Origin: a virus
Reading direction: 5' to 3' (one strand)
Virus record (IMG/VR): IMGVR_UViG_3300047446_000164
Coordinates: 1 to 64,000 of that record
Length of the DNA: 64,000 nucleotides
In this document: piece by piece, positions 34,726 through 51,634 of the stretch
Position numbering within the stretch: the stretch's first letter is position 1
How the letters are laid out: each line of letters begins with the position of its first letter
Program-made: the position numbers and the translations under genes
The notes under the pieces: generated by a model
Seen by the model: only the letters and a program-made list of their open reading frames with translations
What the model was told of the DNA's origin: nothing
Databases searched by the model: none

Positions 34726-34880
34726 GGCTGCACCTGCGATAATTCTGCGATAAACGCGGATGACTGTGGTGAGGCCTCCACCGGCGAACCATAAGTTTTG
34801 CCACAACCATAGAGGCGTGCTCCTATGAACTTGGCGAGCAAAAAAGCTCTCAACTCGTCGCGAATAGTCGCGGCCTTCAC
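34722..34880 (-). CDS. Small protein between HTH and methyltransferase genes
   Basis: A 52-residue protein starting VKAATIRDELRAFLLAKFIG with a GTG start that overlaps the methyltransferase stop (GTGA). It ends IAELSQVQP and overlaps the HTH gene start. The tight overlaps and lack of other explanation support it as real. The family is not recognised. Confidence 0.65.
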   Translation of the reverse strand: MKAATIRDELRAFLLAKFIGARLYGCGKTYGSPVEASPQSSAFIAELSQVQP

Positions 34881-37507
34881 GATGCATTCTCCTGGTCCAG
34901 CGCCACCAGATCGAACAACGTCGGCATGCTCGCCTCGCGCTCCGCCTCCTTCAGGTAGTGCACCTGGTCTCGGAAGTAGGCGGCGTTCAGTTCGGAACCG
35001 CGGCCTTTCCGGCCCAGCTTCACGGCGCGAACACACACCGTACCGAGGCCGTGGAACGGGTCATACACGACGTCGCCCGGGTTCGTATAACGGCCGATTA
35101 GGCGGTCGACGATATCGATCTGGAATGGGCACACGTGATTCTCGACCGCGCGCGCGGCCTGGGCCCCGTTCAGCGTCTTCATGCGCACGATGTCGTGCCA
35201 CACCATCGGATCGCTGCTGCCCGGTGCCAGGCTCATGTAGGTGGCCGGCAGCGACTTGTTCGCCAGCATCTGCTCGCCGGTACCAACGTGCAGCTCGTAG
35301 TCGTAGACGTTGGCCAGCGACAGCTCGGTGAACATCTTCGCCAGCTTGGCCGGGCCGTAACTGGCCAGCTCGGCCGCGCCCAGCAGACGATTGCCGCTGG
35401 AGCGCCAGAAGGCGTGCGCATCGACCTGCCAACGGGCGACGCTGTAGCCGGTGCCGGGGATCGGCGGCAGCGCGCGGTCGAAGTCGACCGGTAGACCATC
35501 ATCGCCGAGGCACTGCGGCTTCGCCTTCGTCACCGGCGTGTCGGCGTAGCCGCGCGCGCGGTCGGTCTGTGGCTTGTGGAACAGCAGGATGTATTCCGGC
35601 GAGCCGACGCCCATCTTCGTGCCATCCTTGCACACCTCCGAATAGCCGAGGCGATAGGTCTGGTTGTTCTCGCGCACCACGTCAGTTACCACCGTGATCA
35701 TGCCCATGTAGTCGAAGCCGTGCTTCAGGCCGTGGAACAGTGCCTCGGCGTGGAACGGGCTGACCGTCGGCACGCCGGCGCCAGTGACGTTCCCGAACAG
35801 GATCCGGTCCTTCACATGACAGGCGTAGATGCGGCCCGGTTGCAGGATGCGTAGCAGCTGCGGCGTCAGGAAATCCATCTGGCGCCAGAACTGCGCGTTG
35901 TCCTGCGTGTGGCCGAAGTCATTGTAGCTCGGGCTGTATTCGTAATGGTTTGCGAACGGGATCGACGTCAGGATCATGCCGACCGAATTCTCGGGCTGCT
36001 CCAGCGCTTCCAGCACGCAATCGTTGTGCGCGACGGTGAAGTGCTCGCCGACGGCCACCTGGCGCTGCACGCCGATCGTGCGCGCGAGCGAATCCTGCAT
36101 CGACAGTTGGTCCAGACCGTAGGTGCGGATGATCTCGCCCATCTTGGCCTGCATCTCGTCGTGCTGCTGCCACTTCACCAGCAGGTCTTCCAGCACCTTG
36201 CGCTCGACTTCGGTATGGACAATATCGATGATCACCGAGTGGGTCTGCTGGAAGCGCTGGACGCGGTGAATGGCCTGGATGAAGTCGTTGAACTTGAACC
36301 CGATGCCGGCAAAAATCTCGCGATGACAGTGCACCTGGAAGTTGCAGCCTGAGCCCGCGATGATAGGCTTCGTCGACAGTACTGGGAACTTGCCGTCGCT
36401 GAAGTCGGCAATACGCTGCTCGCGCTCCTCCAGATCCTGCGTGCCCCACACGCTCACGGCAGCCGGGATTGCGGTCTGGATGGCGTGCCGCTCGTCCTCC
36501 AGGTCGTGCCAGACCACGAAATGATCTTCCGGCGCGGCAGCAATGATCTCGGCGACCTTGGCCACGCGCGCCGGCATGCTGTTGCGCTTCTCGCCGGCAG
36601 CGGCCGACAGGCCCATGGCCACGTTCGGGATCAGCAGTCCCTGGCCGTTCTTCTCGGCGCCGGCGGTCTCGTAGTTGCTGGGCACCTCGTGGTACCGGAC
36701 TTCGATCGGCGGCAGATCATAGCCCTCGTCAGAATGACCCAGATCGCTCGGGCGCTGAATGAACACCGCCCAGCTGGCCACCCACAACCAAAATTCATGC
36801 TCCTTGTGGGGGTACAGCGTCAGGTTGCCGGCCTTCTCGCTGTCGCGCTGGAAGAAGCGGGTCAGCGCCTGGCCGGTGTCCATTACGCCCAGATAACCGG
36901 CATAGTGGATCAGCTCTTTGAAGCGGTTCGGGCTCGGCGTGGCCGTATAGACGAACTTGAACTCGACTGGCTCGAACATCGGCAAGAACTCCTGGTACGT
37001 CTTGCTGCCGTAGCTGCGCAGCACGCTGGCCTCGTCAAGGCCGACGGCACCGATGCGGCTGGTGGTGATTTTCCCTTCGCGAACCGATTCGTAGTTCGTC
37101 AAGTAGATTACGGACGGGTCGACAATTTCCGCGTCGGTGCGCACGAACTGCACCGTGATGGCTTGGGCACCCGTGAAGCGCTTCGCAGCTTCGCGAATGA
37201 ATTCCTGCCTCACGCCCAACGGCAGGACGATCAGGCGGAACATCTCTGGACACCGAATGCCGATCTGCCGCATCACCTCCAGGTTGGTGCTGGTCTTGTG
37301 CAGGCCGAAGGACGCGAAGATGGCACGCTGGCCGCCGGCGAGCGCCCAACGCACGATGTCGCGCGTGTGTGGCTTGAGGCCCGGGTGAATTTGATCCAGC
37401 GGCACGTCGAAGCCTTTCTTCTGTGCCAGCTTGATTTTCTCGCGCAGGAACTGGCCGTATTCGGCCTGCACCAGCAGTTTTTGTTCTTCAGGGCTAAATG
37501 CGCTCAT
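34877..37507 (-). CDS. SF2 helicase-DNA methyltransferase fusion
   Basis: An 876-residue fusion. Residues about 50-440 are a degenerate SF2/SNF2-type helicase: Walker A-like FGLHKTS (68-72 region), DEAS (159-162), TATPSP (188-193) and motif VI QAIHRVQRFQ (411-420). Residues about 490-870 are an amino-methyltransferase of permuted order: motif IV SIPF (515-518, in place of the usual NPPY/SPPY), then motif I DPFHGLGT (816-823). The methyl acceptor would be adenine N6 or cytosine N4. Plausible roles are self-modification against restriction or a phage regulatory mark. I chose the start at MSAFSPEEQK; upstream in-frame sequence lies in the next gene. Confidence 0.86.
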   Translation of the reverse strand: MSAFSPEEQKLLVQAEYGQFLREKIKLAQKKGFDVPLDQIHPGLKPHTRDIVRWALAGGQRAIFASFGLHKTSTNLEVMRQIGIRCPEMFRLIVLPLGVRQEFIREAAKRFTGAQAITVQFVRTDAEIVDPSVIYLTNYESVREGKITTSRIGAVGLDEASVLRSYGSKTYQEFLPMFEPVEFKFVYTATPSPNRFKELIHYAGYLGVMDTGQALTRFFQRDSEKAGNLTLYPHKEHEFWLWVASWAVFIQRPSDLGHSDEGYDLPPIEVRYHEVPSNYETAGAEKNGQGLLIPNVAMGLSAAAGEKRNSMPARVAKVAEIIAAAPEDHFVVWHDLEDERHAIQTAIPAAVSVWGTQDLEEREQRIADFSDGKFPVLSTKPIIAGSGCNFQVHCHREIFAGIGFKFNDFIQAIHRVQRFQQTHSVIIDIVHTEVERKVLEDLLVKWQQHDEMQAKMGEIIRTYGLDQLSMQDSLARTIGVQRQVAVGEHFTVAHNDCVLEALEQPENSVGMILTSIPFANHYEYSPSYNDFGHTQDNAQFWRQMDFLTPQLLRILQPGRIYACHVKDRILFGNVTGAGVPTVSPFHAEALFHGLKHGFDYMGMITVVTDVVRENNQTYRLGYSEVCKDGTKMGVGSPEYILLFHKPQTDRARGYADTPVTKAKPQCLGDDGLPVDFDRALPPIPGTGYSVARWQVDAHAFWRSSGNRLLGAAELASYGPAKLAKMFTELSLANVYDYELHVGTGEQMLANKSLPATYMSLAPGSSDPMVWHDIVRMKTLNGAQAARAVENHVCPFQIDIVDRLIGRYTNPGDVVYDPFHGLGTVCVRAVKLGRKGRGSELNAAYFRDQVHYLKEAEREASMPTLFDLVALDQENAS

Positions 37508-37524
37508 GTCTTTTCCGTTTCGGG

Positions 37525-38235
37525 TTAAATTCCAGCAGCTGGTACAGCAGCGGCTTTGAGGTCTTTCAATAATTTTCGGTAGTGCGCGGTCATGGCGATC
37601 AGTTGGTCGACCGTGTAGTGGCGTGGTTCGTTGTCCGCCTCCAGCGCCTCGACGGCGGCCAGGCCGATGCGCGCGATGACGCCGGCGCGGAAGGATGCCG
37701 CCGTCGTGCCGCCGGGCCGGTTGCAGCCCTTCAGTTGCGCGAACACGTTGCGCTCGTCGAAACGCAAATGGGGATGGCTGCCGCGCGACAGGTAGTGGCC
37801 CGCGTCCCAAGCGCCACCAGTCAGCGTCCCGGCGCCGGCGCGGCGGCCGCAGCAGATGCACGTCCGGTCGCGGTCGCGGAATCGCACCCAGGCGTTGAAC
37901 GCCTTCTGGCAGTCAGCCACGTGGTCAGCCTTGCGCTTGAACTTGGCTAGCTTCTCCTGGCGATCCTTGCGCTCGGCGCGCGCCGTCGTCTGCTTCTGCT
38001 TCTCCAACTTCGCCATGGCCAGCACCGTGCCGCATTCCGGCGAACACCAGATTACGAACGGCGCCGGACGCACGAACTCGGCGCGGCAGGTGCGGACCGC
38101 GCACTTGTGCTTCTTCTCCCGCGTAGCTTTGGTGGCGATCTTCGTCACCTCGCGCGCCTCGATGCGCTCGCCGCGCGCGAACGCGGTACGCTTCATTGGC
38201 GCGGTGCCAGGCTTCATGAAGGTGCGGCGCATCAT
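37525..38235 (-). CDS. NinG/Rap-like recombination protein
   Basis: A 236-residue protein starting MMRRTFMKPG. Zinc-type cysteines at KHKCAVRTCRAEF and a CSPEC pair are followed by a central helical region. The core CICCGRR, WDAGHYLSRGSHPHLRFDERNV and GCNRPGG matches NinG, an HNH-like nuclease that resolves recombination branches. It lies with replication genes as in lambda's nin region. Its start codon shares a base with the extended -10 of the opposing cassette at 38271. Confidence 0.88.
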   Translation of the reverse strand: MMRRTFMKPGTAPMKRTAFARGERIEAREVTKIATKATREKKHKCAVRTCRAEFVRPAPFVIWCSPECGTVLAMAKLEKQKQTTARAERKDRQEKLAKFKRKADHVADCQKAFNAWVRFRDRDRTCICCGRRAGAGTLTGGAWDAGHYLSRGSHPHLRFDERNVFAQLKGCNRPGGTTAASFRAGVIARIGLAAVEALEADNEPRHYTVDQLIAMTAHYRKLLKDLKAAAVPAAGI

Positions 38236-44085: not shown

Positions 44086-44796
44086 TTAGTGGTGGTGCGC
44101 TTGGCTTGCCAGCTGGTGCTTGGCGAATTCGCCAGCGACCCAGTGCAGGCCCTTGGTGGTGAAACGCATGCTGTTGAAGGCGTGCTCATTCTTCGCCGAT
44201 ACGCCAGCTTTCACTTCGAAGCGACCCGCGTTGAGGTGCTCGGCGCGCGGAGCCAGCTCACGGCCAAGCCGATATGCAATCTCCTTGGTCAGCAAGAATT
44301 CACGGAACACGTTTTCTTTGATCTTCAGCACCTTGCAGGCCTGGCGGAAGCCCAGCAGGCCCGACGCGTCAACGTAGCGCTCGACGAATTCGACGGCCGG
44401 CGCGGCGGCGGCCAGCTCTACCTGCAACGCCTGCTTGGCCTCGACTTCATCAGCCCAGGCGCGTGCGGCGGCCGCTGGGTTGGTGAAGTCCGGCAAAGCA
44501 ATCGCAGGGGCCGCTGCTGTTGGTTCCAGCTCTTGCCAGCGGTCTACCAGGCGCGCCGTGAACTCAGGTGACAACTGTGCGACGATCACGTAGGTGTCGC
44601 GTTTAGCGATCTCGTACACAGTGATCGCTTTGGGGCCGGCACCGTGATTTGATACTTCCGCCAGTGGCGGGAGTGTGATGACACCACGCTGCGCGAGCCG
44701 CTCGATGCTGCGCTTGACGTCGTCGTGCCGCGATTCGACCAGTTCGGCGATATCGCGGCTGTTCATGGTGGTGATGCTGGTGCTGATCAAATTCAC
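44086..44796 (-). CDS. Rha-family phage regulator with KilAC-like C terminus
   Basis: A 236-residue protein with a GTG start preceded by GGAG. The N terminus (TTMNSRDIAELVESRHDDVKRSIERL) is the Rha/antirepressor N-terminal domain. The C terminus (RQACKVLKIKENVFREFLL, YRLGRELAPRAEHLNAGRFEVK, TTKGLHWVAGEF) is the KilAC-type domain. Such proteins antagonise repressors or regulate lysogeny. It lies in the leftward early operon downstream of cro, as lambdoid antirepressors do. Confidence 0.86.
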   Translation of the reverse strand: MNLISTSITTMNSRDIAELVESRHDDVKRSIERLAQRGVITLPPLAEVSNHGAGPKAITVYEIAKRDTYVIVAQLSPEFTARLVDRWQELEPTAAAPAIALPDFTNPAAAARAWADEVEAKQALQVELAAAAPAVEFVERYVDASGLLGFRQACKVLKIKENVFREFLLTKEIAYRLGRELAPRAEHLNAGRFEVKAGVSAKNEHAFNSMRFTTKGLHWVAGEFAKHQLASQAHHH

Positions 44797-44843
44797 GGTG
44801 GCTCCTTTGCGTTGGTGGCGTAGGCGACTGGCTGGCCGAGGAT

Positions 44844-45113
44844 TCACATGCGCATGTGGTGGCGCGGCTGCGCATAGTTCGCGCGGCCCGGCAGCAACAT
44901 GGCCATGTTCTGGCCAGCTTTAGGCCATTCCTGTTGCGCCCGGCGCTGCTTATCATTACGAAAACGCGCTGACCAGTCGTTCGCCAGTTGGCGCAGCGTC
45001 CGACTCTGCGACTCGCCGGCGTCGGTGCAGGCCTGGCTAAAGTCGCGGTACTCATCCTCGTTAAACAATGCTTTCGCAACGAGGACGCGGGGTTTCGGCA
45101 TCTTGGTTTTCAT
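44844..45113 (-). CDS. Small basic protein, RHH-like
   Basis: An 89-residue protein starting MKTKMPKPRVLVAKALFNED. The region VAKALFNEDEYRDFSQACTD, then SQSRTLRQLANDWSARF, resembles ribbon-helix-helix DNA-binding proteins of the MobC/CopG kind. The C terminus is Arg/His-rich. Role unknown. Confidence 0.6.
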   Translation of the reverse strand: MKTKMPKPRVLVAKALFNEDEYRDFSQACTDAGESQSRTLRQLANDWSARFRNDKQRRAQQEWPKAGQNMAMLLPGRANYAQPRHHMRM

Positions 45114-45852: not shown

Positions 45853-46186
45853 GGACACGGATGCCACTTGCGCCACTTTGCTCGCCCAACTGATTGAGGG
45901 CTGCAGTGCGACTTGGCGATTCAGATCCTGAGCCGATGGGGCTGCAAACACCTCCCGAGCCGGTACGCGCCTGGCAGCACTGCATCGCCTCCTGGATGTT
46001 CCAGAGCTTCGCCAGTGCTGCTTCGGCTGCCAGCGCCGCTGGCGTCACCTGCTCCAGCAGTGCCAAGGTCTCGCGCACCTGGCTGCTGTCGACTTCGATC
46101 TTCAGCGGGATGCTGGTGGCTGCTACTTGTGTGGCGGCCGGCACGTAGCCGAGGCGCGCCATCAGGCGGTTGATGTAGCGCTTCAT
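45800..46186 (-). CDS. Small protein downstream of cro, unknown
   Basis: A 128-residue protein starting MKRYINRLMARLGYVPAATQV. The N-terminal half is helical (ETLALLEQVTPAALAAEAAL), while the C-terminal part is low-complexity Ser/Gly/Ala-rich and overlaps the convergent cassette gene. It overlaps the Cro-like gene by four bases. No recognised domain. Confidence 0.6.
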   Translation of the reverse strand: MKRYINRLMARLGYVPAATQVAATSIPLKIEVDSSQVRETLALLEQVTPAALAAEAALAKLWNIQEAMQCCQARTGSGGVCSPIGSGSESPSRTAALNQLGEQSGASGIRVLNEASAAAGQTESRQTD

Positions 46187-46461
46187 GCGGTTTCTCCGGT
46201 GGTATTGACCTGGGTCACTGCGGCGCTAAGGGCGCCATCGTTTAATGATTGCGGAACTGGCTCCGGCTTTCCGTATATGTCGTCGAAGCTCAATTCATGC
46301 CCGCACTGCCCAGCAAAAGTGATTAGGCGCTTGGCGACCTCAGGGGGAACGCTCTGCCCGCGCTCGTAGTGCGAGATGTTGCCTTGGCTGACATTAATCC
46401 CGTCCGCTAAGACCTGTTGGGTTACGCCGAGCTTGGCCCGGATATGCGATATCGAGTTCAT
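46183..46461 (-). CDS. cro: Cro-like repressor
   Basis: A 92-residue protein starting MNSISHIRAKLGVTQQVL. Residues about 13-40 form an XRE helix-turn-helix (TQQVLADGINVSQGNISHYE). It is first in the leftward operon and faces the CI gene across the operator. The promoter's TAATAT lies so near that the predicted transcript starts at or next to the ATG, so the mRNA is probably leaderless. It should bind the AGTCNGACT operators. Confidence 0.83.
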   Translation of the reverse strand: MNSISHIRAKLGVTQQVLADGINVSQGNISHYERGQSVPPEVAKRLITFAGQCGHELSFDDIYGKPEPVPQSLNDGALSAAVTQVNTTGETA

Positions 46462-46468
46462 GGAACAA

Positions 46469-46510
46469 ATATTAGTCGGACTGCTAGATAATGTCAACAG
46501 TCTGACTAAT
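46469..46510 (-). promoter_or_regulatory. Leftward early promoter with operator pair
   Basis: On the minus strand TTGACA (46497-46492), a 17-base spacer and TAATAT (46474-46469), a near-perfect sigma-70 promoter. Two operator copies with core AGTCNGACT lie at 46474-46482 and 46499-46507, 25 bp apart centre to centre and arranged as ATTAGTCGGACTG ... CAGTCTGACTAAT. They cover the -10 and flank the -35. The second is also placed about 40 bases before the CI start and could support autoactivation. Confidence 0.85.
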
Positions 46511-46544
46511 TGAAATTTATTAGGCTTACTTATATTCTCCTCGA

Positions 46545-47282
46545 ATGCCCGCACAACCCTTATCTCCCGGCCAGTTGGCCGAAGCCGCCAAGCTCAAAGA
46601 CCTTTTCAAGGAATGGCAGCGCGCGCGTAAAGAATCCGGATTGCCTTCTTCTCAGGAAGCAGCAGCAGATCTGCTGGGGTTTGGACAAAGCGCCCTGGCG
46701 CAGTATTTGAATGGTCGCATCCCACTCAACGTGGATGCGAGTGCGAAATTCGCTGGTTTGCTCGGCGTGAGCATAGGCGACTTCAGTAAATCCATATCGG
46801 ACCAAGCGCTTCGCGTCGCAGGGGCCGTCGCGATTACGGACGACGATGATGACGCCCCGCCCTCGATTGCGATCCAGATGGTAACGATTGAGGTGCAGGC
46901 AGGCATTGACCGATTTGTGGCCGAACCGATTGATGATGGCGGTAGTAAGCACCATGTGCCACGTCAATGGCTGGAGGAAAATGATTTTTACCCGGGCGCA
47001 CTCGTCGCGGTGAAAATTAAGGGTGACAGCATGCAACCCTTGATGTACGAAGGCGACATTGCGGTCGTGAACACGGCCGATAAAGCGCGCAAGAGCGGTG
47101 GGGTCTTTGCTATGAATTACGAGGGCCAAGCCGTCATCAAGCGCCTACTGTACGAGCGCCGCGATTGGTATCTCGCGTCGGACAATCCCGAGTTTAAGCC
47201 AGTCCCCTGCCGTGGTGCTGATTGCATCGTTATCGGCCGTGTGGTTCACTTCACCCCGAAAAATTTCAGAGACCGGCTATGA
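46545..47282 (+). CDS. cI: CI-type repressor (XRE + S24 peptidase)
   Basis: A 245-residue repressor. Residues about 15-80 hold the helix-turn-helix (AADLLGFGQSALAQYLNGR). The C-terminal LexA/S24 domain has nucleophile Ser162 in KGDSMQP and Lys199 in AVIKRL. A likely self-cleavage site is Ala92-Gly93. RecA-stimulated cleavage would induce the prophage. Its own promoter is probably TTGAAA (46510-46515) and TATATT (46531-46536), which places the start next to the ATG. Target sites are the operator pairs at 46.48 and 52.03 kb. Confidence 0.9.
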   Translation: MPAQPLSPGQLAEAAKLKDLFKEWQRARKESGLPSSQEAAADLLGFGQSALAQYLNGRIPLNVDASAKFAGLLGVSIGDFSKSISDQALRVAGAVAITDDDDDAPPSIAIQMVTIEVQAGIDRFVAEPIDDGGSKHHVPRQWLEENDFYPGALVAVKIKGDSMQPLMYEGDIAVVNTADKARKSGGVFAMNYEGQAVIKRLLYERRDWYLASDNPEFKPVPCRGADCIVIGRVVHFTPKNFRDRL

Positions 47283-49187: not shown

Positions 49188-49871
49188 ATGAACTCATATA
49201 AATCTGCCGCGCTTGCCGCCGTTGCCTCGTTGTGCCTGCTATCCACCTCCGCGCAGGCGGCCGGGCCAGTGCTGATCACCTTCGACGCCGGTGATCCGAT
49301 CGGCGGCTTGGCTGTGGGCGAAACGCTCGGCAATCAATACGCTGCGTATGGAGTGACGTTTGCCTCCAGTCCGTTCAATGGACCGGGCGGACCCACTACG
49401 AAATGGGCCACCAACACCGACATGACGATCATCTCATCGTCCGGCAACGACATCGGAGGACTTGGCTCGCCTTCACTGGTAAGTGGCAACATCTTGCACT
49501 CGTTCGGTGGCTGGCTCGGTGAAAACGGTGACCCCAGCTTCGTCGCAAAGTTCAGCCAAGGCGTAACCTCGTTCAGTGCGGATTTCGCTGGCGTGTTTTA
49601 CCCCCAATCAGTGGGGCTGTACGCCTACAATGGCACCACCCTGCTCGGTTCAGTCTTTGGCACGGTCGCTACCGGCCAATTTACGCTGAGCATCGCCAGC
49701 GCCAAAACGATCACCAGCGTGGTGATCTCGAACGGGGGCTTCGACGACTGGGTCGGCGTCGACAATATCAGCTTTACCAACGTCTCAGCAGTGCCTGAAC
49801 CGACAACCTACGCCATGTTCGTCCTGGGTCTGGGTCTGCTGGGCTTCATGAGCCGCAAGCGCACCGCATGA
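49188..49871 (+). CDS. PEP-CTERM sorting domain protein inside the immunity region
   Basis: A 227-residue exported protein. The signal peptide is MNSYKSAALAAVASLCLLST, cut after AQA. A beta-rich body (LITFDAGDPIGGL, YGVTFASSPF, SFSADFAGVFYPQSVGLYAY) has the jelly-roll look of exopolysaccharide-associated proteins. The C-terminal signal is VPEPTTYAMFVLGLGLLGFM then SRKR. The host exosortase would process it. It is well within the phage genome, so it is phage cargo rather than flank. Confidence 0.87.
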   Translation: MNSYKSAALAAVASLCLLSTSAQAAGPVLITFDAGDPIGGLAVGETLGNQYAAYGVTFASSPFNGPGGPTTKWATNTDMTIISSSGNDIGGLGSPSLVSGNILHSFGGWLGENGDPSFVAKFSQGVTSFSADFAGVFYPQSVGLYAYNGTTLLGSVFGTVATGQFTLSIASAKTITSVVISNGGFDDWVGVDNISFTNVSAVPEPTTYAMFVLGLGLLGFMSRKRTA

Positions 49872-50081: not shown

Positions 50082-50271
50082 TGCCATATCATCGTGACAA
50101 TTCGTTAGATTCCAGCGCTCAACAATGCATACAATGTTGACACTGTTAGCAGCTATGGCGCAAAGGTGCAGAAGCACCAATGCCCTGACATACTAATTCC
50201 TAACATTGTAATTTTATATCCTCACACTATTGCGGGGTTATCTTGATTAAAATTAACCCATAAGTTAATAT

Positions 50272-50658
50272 ATGGCTTATCATGTGCTTGTTAAAAAGAA
50301 ATATGCCGTGGCATGCCTCGAGTCAATTAGTGAGGACTGGACAACAAATTGTCCTGGTTTGGATTTCTTAGCTAAGGCGCACAACGATGCGAATACCCGT
50401 AAAAGCTGTAATGGCTACAGTGCGATGTTCCACCACATTGCTGAGCATGGTCCAGGCTCCCTTACTGGCGCTATGTCCCATGAGGCAAACAAAGAAAATT
50501 CAATCATGGAGCTCATTAAGGGGCGTCTACGCCTCTTGTACTTCACTGACGGCGACACCATTTACATTACGAACGGCTACCTGAAGAGCTCCCAAAAGGC
50601 CGACCCTGCTGAGGTAGCCCGAGCAATCAGCGCTCGAAACGCATTTTATAAAAAATAA
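50272..50658 (+). CDS. HigB/RelE-like toxin of a toxin-antitoxin-chaperone triplet
   Basis: A 128-residue protein. The C-terminal half MELIKGRLRLLYFTDGDTIYIT, with GYLKSSQKADPAEVARAI, follows the HigB/Gp49 RNase plan (a basic strand, an aromatic strand, then a K-x-Q-K-x-x-x-x-E-x-x-x-A helix). Such toxins cleave mRNA on the ribosome. It is first in the order toxin, antitoxin, SecB-like chaperone. The start is uncertain because the best -10 abuts the ATG; a GTG at 50284 could be used. Confidence 0.76.
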   Translation: MAYHVLVKKKYAVACLESISEDWTTNCPGLDFLAKAHNDANTRKSCNGYSAMFHHIAEHGPGSLTGAMSHEANKENSIMELIKGRLRLLYFTDGDTIYITNGYLKSSQKADPAEVARAISARNAFYKK

Positions 50659-50676
50659 TATCCATAGGAGTTTACG

Positions 50677-51093
50677 ATGAAATCCGCAGAGCTCGCTGCC
50701 TGGTTCAATTCACTTCCAGTTGATGCTGCAGAAACGATCAAACTGGAATTCGCTATCGCTATTGATGCTGCGATCAAGAGCAAAAATATGACCCGCAAGC
50801 AGGTAGCGGATGCTGTCGCGACCAGTCCAGCCTGGGTTACTAAGGTCCTGCGTGGCGACGTCAATTTGACGATCGAAAGCATGGCGAAATTGTGTCAAGC
50901 GATTGATCATAAATTGGAAATCAAAGTAGCTCGACGCCAAGCGATTGCTCAGTCCAATGTCGTTAGTCACTCAGAGTTTTTGAGTAGGAACACCGCGCGA
51001 GTGAAGACCCGAGGTGCATTCGAGTTTGAGATGCTTACCGGCTCAAGCGGAATGTTAATTTGCAATGATAATGAGTACGCGAATGCAGCTTAG
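50677..51093 (+). CDS. HigA-like antitoxin with C-terminal extension
   Basis: A 138-residue protein, AGGAG upstream. Residues about 35-75 form an XRE helix-turn-helix (TRKQVADAVATSPAWVTKVL). The C-terminal 35 residues after the DNA-binding part are hydrophobic and flexible (FEFEMLTGSSGMLICNDNEY). This fits a chaperone-addiction segment that keeps the antitoxin unstable unless the SecB-like partner binds. It probably represses its own operon. Confidence 0.8.
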   Translation: MKSAELAAWFNSLPVDAAETIKLEFAIAIDAAIKSKNMTRKQVADAVATSPAWVTKVLRGDVNLTIESMAKLCQAIDHKLEIKVARRQAIAQSNVVSHSEFLSRNTARVKTRGAFEFEMLTGSSGMLICNDNEYANAA

Positions 51094-51634
51094 TCCATTA
51101 CAGCTTGAGGATCTCAGATTCGTTCACGTTTGCATTGAGCCTCGTGAAGTTCCTGACTTCAAAGACTTTGATAAAGTCTTCACACCCTATGAATTTGGGA
51201 ATACAAAATTTACCTCGACGGTTGAGCACGTGCAGGCGCCAGACGAAGAGGATAGTCCTACGACCAAGTTTATTGTCGGCCTGACCCTGCAACTGCCGGA
51301 CGAAGGGGATACACCCCCCCCTTATATCATTGACGTCAAGTGCATCGGTTACTTTACCATCGATAAAGGCGCATTCCCTGATTCCGTCAAGCGCTATGAT
51401 GTTGGCGTGGTGAATGGCGCCTCGCTACTCTATGGGGCCATGCGCGAGATGATTGCAACCACCACCTCTCGTCTGTGGTATGGCAAGATGTTTCTACCAG
51501 CAGTTAACTTTCTTGCAAACGCCCCCAGTAAGGGGGATCACGAGGAGTACACACCCTCGAAGGTCGCGCCTGCCAAGGCAAGGCCGAAGCGGAAAGCGAG
51601 TGCATCGAACAAGCGCTCGGTTGAACCGCTGTAA
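51065..51634 (+). CDS. SecB-like chaperone of the TAC triplet
   Basis: A 189-residue protein (or 183 from the ATG at 51083). The middle matches the SecB fold: VHVCIEPREVPDFKDF, IIDVKCIGYFTIDKGAF, and a C-terminal YGAMREMIATTTSRLWYGKM followed by FLPAVNF, like the SecB LPPVNF motif. SecB-like proteins next to HigBA hold the antitoxin in a stable state; the mycobacterial HigB1-HigA1-Rv1957 system has the same order and sizes. The C-terminal 35 residues are basic and disordered. Overlaps the antitoxin gene. Confidence 0.82.
   Translation: MIMSTRMQLSPLQLEDLRFVHVCIEPREVPDFKDFDKVFTPYEFGNTKFTSTVEHVQAPDEEDSPTTKFIVGLTLQLPDEGDTPPPYIIDVKCIGYFTIDKGAFPDSVKRYDVGVVNGASLLYGAMREMIATTTSRLWYGKMFLPAVNFLANAPSKGDHEEYTPSKVAPAKARPKRKASASNKRSVEPL

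What the first reader, a model, noticed from the sequence alone, without database searches (positions are those of the whole stretch)
50272..51634. HigB-HigA-SecB-like toxin-antitoxin-chaperone triplet in the immunity region
Three adjacent rightward genes encode a HigB/RelE-like toxin (128 residues), a HigA-like antitoxin with a hydrophobic C-terminal extension (138), and a SecB-like chaperone ending in an LPAVNF motif (about 185). Order and sizes match the mycobacterial TAC system (HigB1, HigA1, Rv1957). Chaperone-dependent antitoxins are known to sense foreign proteins that sequester the chaperone, and TAC systems can act against phages. Here the triplet is phage-borne and next to the repressor, so it may serve prophage stability or superinfection defence. 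Whether it also responds to loss of the host SecB is unknown.
Basis: partly seen in the sequence, partly recalled or inferred. Interest (0 to 1): 0.75.

Follow-up and report, generated by a model that had tools for sequence, protein, structure and literature searches.

The report
Phage-borne HigB-HigA-SecB toxin-antitoxin-chaperone triplet
This phage carries, downstream of and in line with its lysogeny repressor, a three-gene toxin, antitoxin and chaperone module of a kind known elsewhere to abort infections by other phages, and its chaperone appears to have been borrowed from a different type of toxin-antitoxin system.

Summary
Three co-directional genes encode a HigB toxin (50272-50658), a HigA antitoxin with a ~50-residue C-terminal extension (50677-51093) and a SecB-fold chaperone (51083-51634; its start overlaps higA by 11 nt). 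Profile and structure searches independently return HigB, including the M. tuberculosis TAC toxin, and SecB, including Rv1957. This is a toxin-antitoxin-chaperone (TAC) module of the HigBAC kind; a relative is reported to be released when a phage tail protein takes its chaperone.

First, such triplets recur in phages: of 18 viral contigs found through the antitoxin alone, 17 have HigB and 15 a SecB-like gene; in 9 (8 distinct) a CI/S24 repressor lies directly upstream on the same strand. Second, this chaperone is not of the HigBAC lineage. It nests among chaperones of MqsA-type TACs (93/89; grouping with HigBAC rejected, p=0.0008), and its antitoxin alone lacks the extension tryptophan that the other 10 of 11 aligned antitoxins have. 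The module looks like a natural HigBA plus MqsC-type chaperone chimera.

Function is inferred, not assayed. The likely role is superinfection defence by a lysogen. Known kind, new variant.

The parts
50272..50658 (+). higB: toxin, 128 aa, RelE/HigB fold; K105, Q108 and K109 in the same spacing as HigB1 K95/Q98/K99, R87 aligned with S. pneumoniae HigB R73
   Evidence: Pfam Gp49 8.8e-5, just under cut-off; family profile hits PDB HigB 6af3 at 3.5e-5; AlphaFold2 model pLDDT 93, Foldseek S. pneumoniae HigB 7.6e-7 and M. tuberculosis HigB1 7awk 3.1e-4
50666..50670 (+). AGGAG ribosome-binding site of higA
   Evidence: sequence, 6 nt before the ATG at 50677
50677..51093 (+). higA: antitoxin, 138 aa, HTH (residues ~20-85) plus C-terminal extension
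   Evidence: HTH_37 1.8e-5, phrog_1373 1e-15, alignments with other TAC antitoxins
50938..51090 (+). C-terminal extension of HigA (residues ~88-138), candidate chaperone-addiction (ChAD) region; lacks the Trp found in the other sampled TAC HigAs
   Evidence: alignment A9, Trp column nearly invariant, window the exception; sequences
51083..51634 (+). higC: SecB-like chaperone, 183 aa, MqsC-type lineage, basic disordered tail
   Evidence: SecB profile and fold hits; tree
51083..51093 (+). 11-nt overlap of higC start and higA stop (translational coupling likely)
   Evidence: sequence; start chosen by homologue alignment
50119..50140 (.). imperfect 9-bp inverted repeat TCAACAATG-4-CAATGTTGA upstream of higB, possible operator
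   Evidence: weak, may be chance; no sigma-70-type promoter-like match found upstream on the + strand
46545..47282 (+). CI-type repressor (HTH + S24 peptidase), same strand, upstream
   Evidence: Peptidase_S24 7.2e-20, phrog_4 4.9e-39
46183..46554 (-). Cro-like divergent regulator
   Evidence: HTH_3 2.5e-8; repressor PHROGs

Best explanation
It is a tripartite toxin-antitoxin-chaperone (TAC) module of the HigBAC kind carried as cargo (a moron) by a temperate phage. HigB is a ribosome-dependent mRNA-cleaving toxin. HigA neutralises it and probably represses the operon. HigA's C-terminal extension makes its folding depend on the SecB-like chaperone HigC. In a lysogen the three proteins are balanced. 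When another phage infects, one of its proteins (in the studied E. coli HigBAC, the major tail protein of lambda) occupies HigC, HigA collapses, HigB is freed and translation stops, so the second infection aborts. Shown here by computation: the families, folds, gene order, repressor linkage, and recurrence in phages. Inferred: activity, chaperone dependence, trigger, and superinfection defence. In this phage the sensor (the chaperone, and probably with it the antitoxin extension) appears to have been exchanged for one of the MqsRAC type. My confidence in the TAC identity alone is about 0.93; the figure given is for identity plus a defence role.
For: Toxin: family profile hits PDB HigB at 3.5e-5; model pLDDT 93 with S. 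pneumoniae HigB 7.6e-7 and M. tuberculosis TAC toxin 3.1e-4; residues matching HigB1 K95, Q98 and K99 (K95A and K99A abolish toxicity, PMC9098466) are kept. Chaperone: profile vs PDB gives only SecB and Rv1957; profile-profile vs canonical SecB 97%; a profile of five TAC chaperones finds a match in 273 of 369 genomes, with canonical grx-secB-gpsA loci among those read; Foldseek SecB 2.4e-6, Rv1957 3.7e-6. Operon: same order in L007, L015, L017, L018, L020 and in viral L044-L049 and most of L051-L066. Placement: repressor upstream on the same strand here and in 9 viral loci. The triplet has 45-49% GC against 60-66% in the backbone, as expected of acquired cargo. Literature: TACs protect against phages and extra chaperone abolishes protection (PMC9519451); HigBAC is triggered by the lambda major tail protein (PMC11980606 citing Mets 2024).
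Against: No assay. The antitoxin extension lacks the Trp and the W-x-R-x3-Y pattern that bind Rv1957 and resembles no other extension tested, so chaperone dependence is not shown. A phage-borne module that senses phage tail proteins must avoid its own phage's proteins; not tested. No convincing promoter or operator was found.
Confidence: 0.65

Rival explanations
1. Prophage-maintenance (addiction) module: the triplet mainly kills or arrests cells that lose the prophage, and the chaperone merely makes the antitoxin more labile; phage sensing is incidental.
For: Phage-borne, on the repressor side, and type II TA modules can stabilise replicons (general knowledge); a chaperone-dependent HigA should be short-lived.
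Against: Addiction needs no chaperone; tested TACs act in phage defence. Fifteen of 18 viral loci keep the chaperone, which addiction alone does not predict.
Confidence: 0.2
2. Partly decayed or uncoupled module: HigBA works as an ordinary two-gene toxin-antitoxin pair, and the SecB-like protein is no longer needed by HigA (or serves phage or host protein folding instead).
For: HigA extension lacks the tryptophan of other HigA extensions; the chaperone comes from another TAC lineage; the closest toxin/antitoxin relative L050 has no recognisable SecB gene.
Against: higA and higC still overlap by 11 nt, all ORFs are intact, and the chaperone keeps the conserved family residues (VNGASLLYGA..RE, LP..NF), so selection seems still to act on it.
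Confidence: 0.12
3. The chaperone acts as a general SecB for export or phage assembly and its position behind higBA is accidental.
For: TAC chaperones can complement an E. coli secB mutant (PMC5105189).
Against: The closest relatives of this chaperone all sit behind a TA pair; overlapping genes; same triplet in many phages.
Confidence: 0.03

Closest known systems
E. coli HigBAC (strain C496; Mets et al. 2024, via PMC11980606)
   Same: Same three components and order; HigB-type mRNase, HigA, SecB-like chaperone; reported to abort phage infection when the lambda major tail protein disrupts the antitoxin-chaperone interaction
   Different: Here the module lies in a phage of unidentified host, in line with CI; chaperone of MqsC-type lineage; trigger unknown. 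The E. coli HigBAC sequence was not at hand, so no direct alignment was made
M. tuberculosis TAC (HigB1-HigA1-Rv1957)
   Same: Order, toxin fold (7awk 3.1e-4), chaperone fold (5mtw 3.7e-6), C-terminal antitoxin extension
   Different: Chromosomal; ChAD with W108/R110/Y114, not present here; chaperone sequence similarity very low (profile E 0.72)
MqsRAC (MqsA-type TAC) of Cupriavidus and other Burkholderiaceae
   Same: Chaperone 39-43% identical and the closest relative in every search
   Different: Antitoxin is MqsA (5e-15) with a gene in the MqsR position, not HigB/HigA
CmdTAC (PD-T4-9)
   Same: TAC with SecB-like chaperone that defends against phages; its chaperone is the only PADLOC family the third protein touches (3.3e-3)
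   Different: ADP-ribosyltransferase toxin, unrelated antitoxin

Membership tests
TAC / HigBAC | HigB-type (RelE/ParE superfamily) toxin gene first | tested here: met
TAC / HigBAC | HigA-type HTH antitoxin second | tested here: met
   HTH domain; family profile hits HigA antitoxins in PDB at 0.003-0.007 and five of six members hit TIGR02607; the window protein alone is far below the TIGR02607 cut-off (13.3 of 47.7 bits)
TAC / HigBAC | SecB-fold chaperone third, in the same operon | tested here: met
   11-nt overlap
TAC / HigBAC | Antitoxin carries a C-terminal extension beyond the HTH | tested here: met
   ~50 residues
TAC / HigBAC | Extension is a chaperone-addiction sequence | tested here: inconclusive
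   No Trp and no W-x-R-x3-Y pattern as in HigA1; but ChADs of different TACs show no significant similarity to one another (PMC5105189)
TAC / HigBAC | Toxin neutralised only with antitoxin plus chaperone | not testable with these tools
   needs a growth assay
HigBAC (chaperone lineage; not definitional, since chaperone/ChAD pairs are transferable) | Chaperone belongs with the chaperones of other HigBACs | tested here: not met
   Nests with MqsA-type TAC chaperones 93/89, inner group 97/97; AU p=0.0008 against placing it with HigBAC chaperones, p=0.08 for the same set without it
Anti-phage defence system | Reduces plaquing of phages | not testable with these tools
   needs plaque assays; inferred from tested relatives

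The most novel reading that the evidence does not exclude
Temperate phages keep HigBAC modules beside their repressor as a standard immunity-region defence and change what the module senses by swapping the chaperone together with the matching antitoxin extension. This phage carries a natural HigBA plus MqsC-type chaperone hybrid, the counterpart in nature of the engineered CmdTA-HigC hybrid, with a different recognition code (no Trp-based ChAD) and so probably a different phage trigger.
Probability: 0.45. Interest if true: 0.65.

Novelty: new variant of a known kind. Interest (0 to 1): 0.45.

Why it matters
If true, it shows that the modularity of toxin-antitoxin-chaperone systems, so far shown mainly by engineering, is used in nature by phages: the toxin part is kept and the sensor is exchanged. 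It also suggests that HigBAC is a recurrent lysogeny-module defence gene set. That makes a clear question testable: how does a phage-borne module that senses phage tail proteins tolerate induction of its own prophage?

Tried and rejected
Single-sequence searches of PDB, NCBIfam and the annotated phage and plasmid collections gave almost nothing; family profiles were needed. Pattern scans with the window chaperone alone found no relative in viral or genome contigs, nor did a three-member chaperone alignment in viral contigs; the antitoxin alignment did. A direct similarity between the window HigA extension and MqsA C-termini or other HigA extensions was tested and not found (p 0.28 or more). 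The window HigB and HigA each group with viral L050 (88/76 and 90/94), but the HigA pair is flagged as meeting long branches, so this was not used as a main argument. An AU test on all HigBAC chaperones (p=0.002) was set aside because several long-branch members break that group anyway; the trimmed sets were used. A search for window-like HigA in 399 Burkholderiaceae genomes was empty and shows little without a positive control. Promoter and terminator scan: no more than shuffles.

Full report
What is there. The window is 64,000 of the 65,867 bases of an IMG/VR virus record. Terminase, portal, scaffold, major head protein, adaptor, neck, tail terminator, tape-measure (1,677 aa) and helicase-loader genes lie on the minus strand. 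A CI-type repressor with an S24 domain lies at 46545-47282 on the plus strand, facing a divergent Cro-like regulator at 46183-46554. Downstream on the plus strand come a zinc-ribbon protein, a 270-residue protein, a PEP-CTERM protein, then the triplet, then further on an Erf-like annealing protein and RecE-like exonuclease. The triplet has 45-49% GC while the backbone has 60-66%, so it looks like acquired cargo.

The three genes. higB 50272-50658 (128 aa), higA 50677-51093 (138 aa, AGGAG 6 nt before its ATG) and higC to 51634. Homologues fix the start of higC at 51083, inside the end of higA, with an 11-nt overlap.

The toxin. Alone it just misses Pfam's cut-off for Gp49 (8.8e-5; 22.9 of 23.9 bits). 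A profile of six toxins from such triplets has one clear best PDB sequence, S. pneumoniae HigB (3.5e-5). The AlphaFold2 model (pLDDT 93) matches S. pneumoniae HigB at 7.6e-7 and the M. tuberculosis TAC toxin HigB1 at 3.1e-4. In HigB1 alanine changes at K58, R68, R77, K95 and K99 inhibit toxicity, N73A strongly affects it, and Q98 is a proposed catalytic residue (PMC9098466). The window protein has K105, Q108 and K109 in the same spacing as K95, Q98 and K99, and R87 aligned with the equivalent of R77. It should be active; this is inference.

The antitoxin. The HTH is clear (HTH_37 1.8e-5; phrog_1373 1e-15). After residue ~87 comes an extension of about 50 residues. In an alignment of 11 such antitoxins a tryptophan just after the HTH domain is nearly invariant (sequences); the window protein is the exception. 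In M. tuberculosis HigA1, W108, R110 and Y114 of the extension bind the chaperone (PMC6377645). Extensions of different TACs show no significant similarity to one another (PMC5105189), so the absence does not exclude chaperone dependence, but it leaves it unshown.

The chaperone. A profile of ten TAC chaperones searched against the PDB returns only SecB (1.7e-8, 2.1e-5, 2.3e-5) and Rv1957 (0.72). Profile-profile comparison with canonical SecB gives 97%. An earlier five-member profile matches in 273 of 369 genomes of one class; several of the matching loci that were read are canonical glutaredoxin-secB-gpsA loci. The model (four strands then a long helix, pLDDT 76) has SecB and Rv1957 as its top Foldseek matches (2.4e-6, 3.7e-6).

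The same triplet elsewhere. Cellular loci L007, L015, L017, L018 and L020 show HigB, HigA and SecB-like genes in the same order. For phages, viral contigs were fetched with the antitoxin alignment alone, which does not itself require a chaperone, although the aligned antitoxins came mostly from triplets. Of 18 loci, 17 have HigB upstream. Fifteen have a SecB-like gene downstream (one, L059, cut by the contig end and scoring weakly); L065 ends too early to tell, L050 has a different third ORF, and L067 lacks HigB and SecB. Two pairs (L054/L055 and L059/L060) are near-duplicates. In 9 loci (8 distinct) a co-oriented CI/S24 repressor lies 55-755 nt upstream of the higB open frame (E below 1e-10); two more have weak matches. 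The S24 profile was built from the window, L048 and L049, but Pfam independently calls Peptidase_S24 in L048 and L049.

The chaperone's origin. The closest relatives of the window chaperone (39-43% identity) all sit behind MqsA-type antitoxins in Cupriavidus and other Burkholderiaceae (MqsA 5e-15 and 8.6e-21; the toxin-position gene is not recognised by Pfam). In the maximum-likelihood tree the window lies inside the MqsA-type group (93/89), with three Burkholderiaceae members at 97/97. Forcing it together with the HigBAC chaperones is rejected (AU p=0.0008), while the HigBAC chaperones without it are not rejected as one group (p=0.08) (one search gave 0.047 and 0.49). With the missing tryptophan in its antitoxin, the simplest account is that a HigBA pair acquired an MqsC-type chaperone and a matching extension. 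No sequence similarity between the extension and MqsA C-termini could be shown, so the second half is conjecture.

How it most likely works. By the TAC mechanism established for relatives: the chaperone keeps the antitoxin folded; a phage protein that takes the chaperone frees the toxin; translation stops. In CmdTAC and MqsRAC an excess of chaperone abolishes or inhibits protection (PMC9519451). HigBAC of E. coli C496 is triggered by the lambda major tail protein (PMC11980606 citing Mets et al. 2024; that paper itself was not readable here). In this phage, co-orientation behind the repressor suggests expression in the lysogen and defence against other phages. The trigger, the dependence on HigC and the avoidance of self-triggering at induction are unknown.

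Known or new. TACs, HigBAC and their anti-phage role are known, and 12 of 21 defence systems in one E. coli screen lay in prophages. In the open-access library searched, no paper was found that describes HigBAC linked to CI in phages or a natural HigBA-MqsC-type hybrid, but most subscription papers are not held. Verdict: new variant of a known kind, moderate interest.

Noticed in passing
viral loci L050-L067: HigBAC triplets recur in temperate-phage contigs, commonly directly downstream of and co-oriented with a CI/S24 repressor (9 of 18 loci); the window fits the pattern at a larger distance (3 kb).
   Followed up: partly
L008:4075-5480: A DUF4160 gene, a DUF2442 gene and a SecB-like chaperone form a tight triplet in a Chloracidobacterium MAG: possibly a further TAC type with a different toxin-antitoxin pair.
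   Followed up: no
L043:4425-4775 (same contig as L050): Phage HigBA whose third, overlapping ORF (116 aa) has no Pfam match and is not SecB by profile; possibly another antitoxin partner.
   Followed up: partly
window 34877-37861 (about 35525-35994), minus strand: A helicase/methyltransferase gene shares ~450 bp at 81-83% DNA identity with Arthrobacter and Mycobacterium phages, although no other DNA of the 22 kb compared matches them: unusually strong cross-host conservation or transfer.
   Followed up: no
window 49188-49871, plus strand: A secreted protein with a PEP-CTERM sorting motif (E 2.7e-8) encoded in the phage cargo region between CI and the triplet; unusual for a phage gene.
   Followed up: no
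L003:3000-8468: An MqsA-type TAC lies directly upstream of a DISARM drmA gene on a Thiodictyon plasmid.
   Followed up: no
L016:1110-1788: A HigA with hardly any C-terminal extension is followed by a SecB-like frame with an in-frame TAG and no intact HigB: a probably decaying TAC.
   Followed up: no
window 44086-44847, minus strand: Anti-repressor Ant family gene (phrog_63 2e-60) near the immunity region.
   Followed up: no
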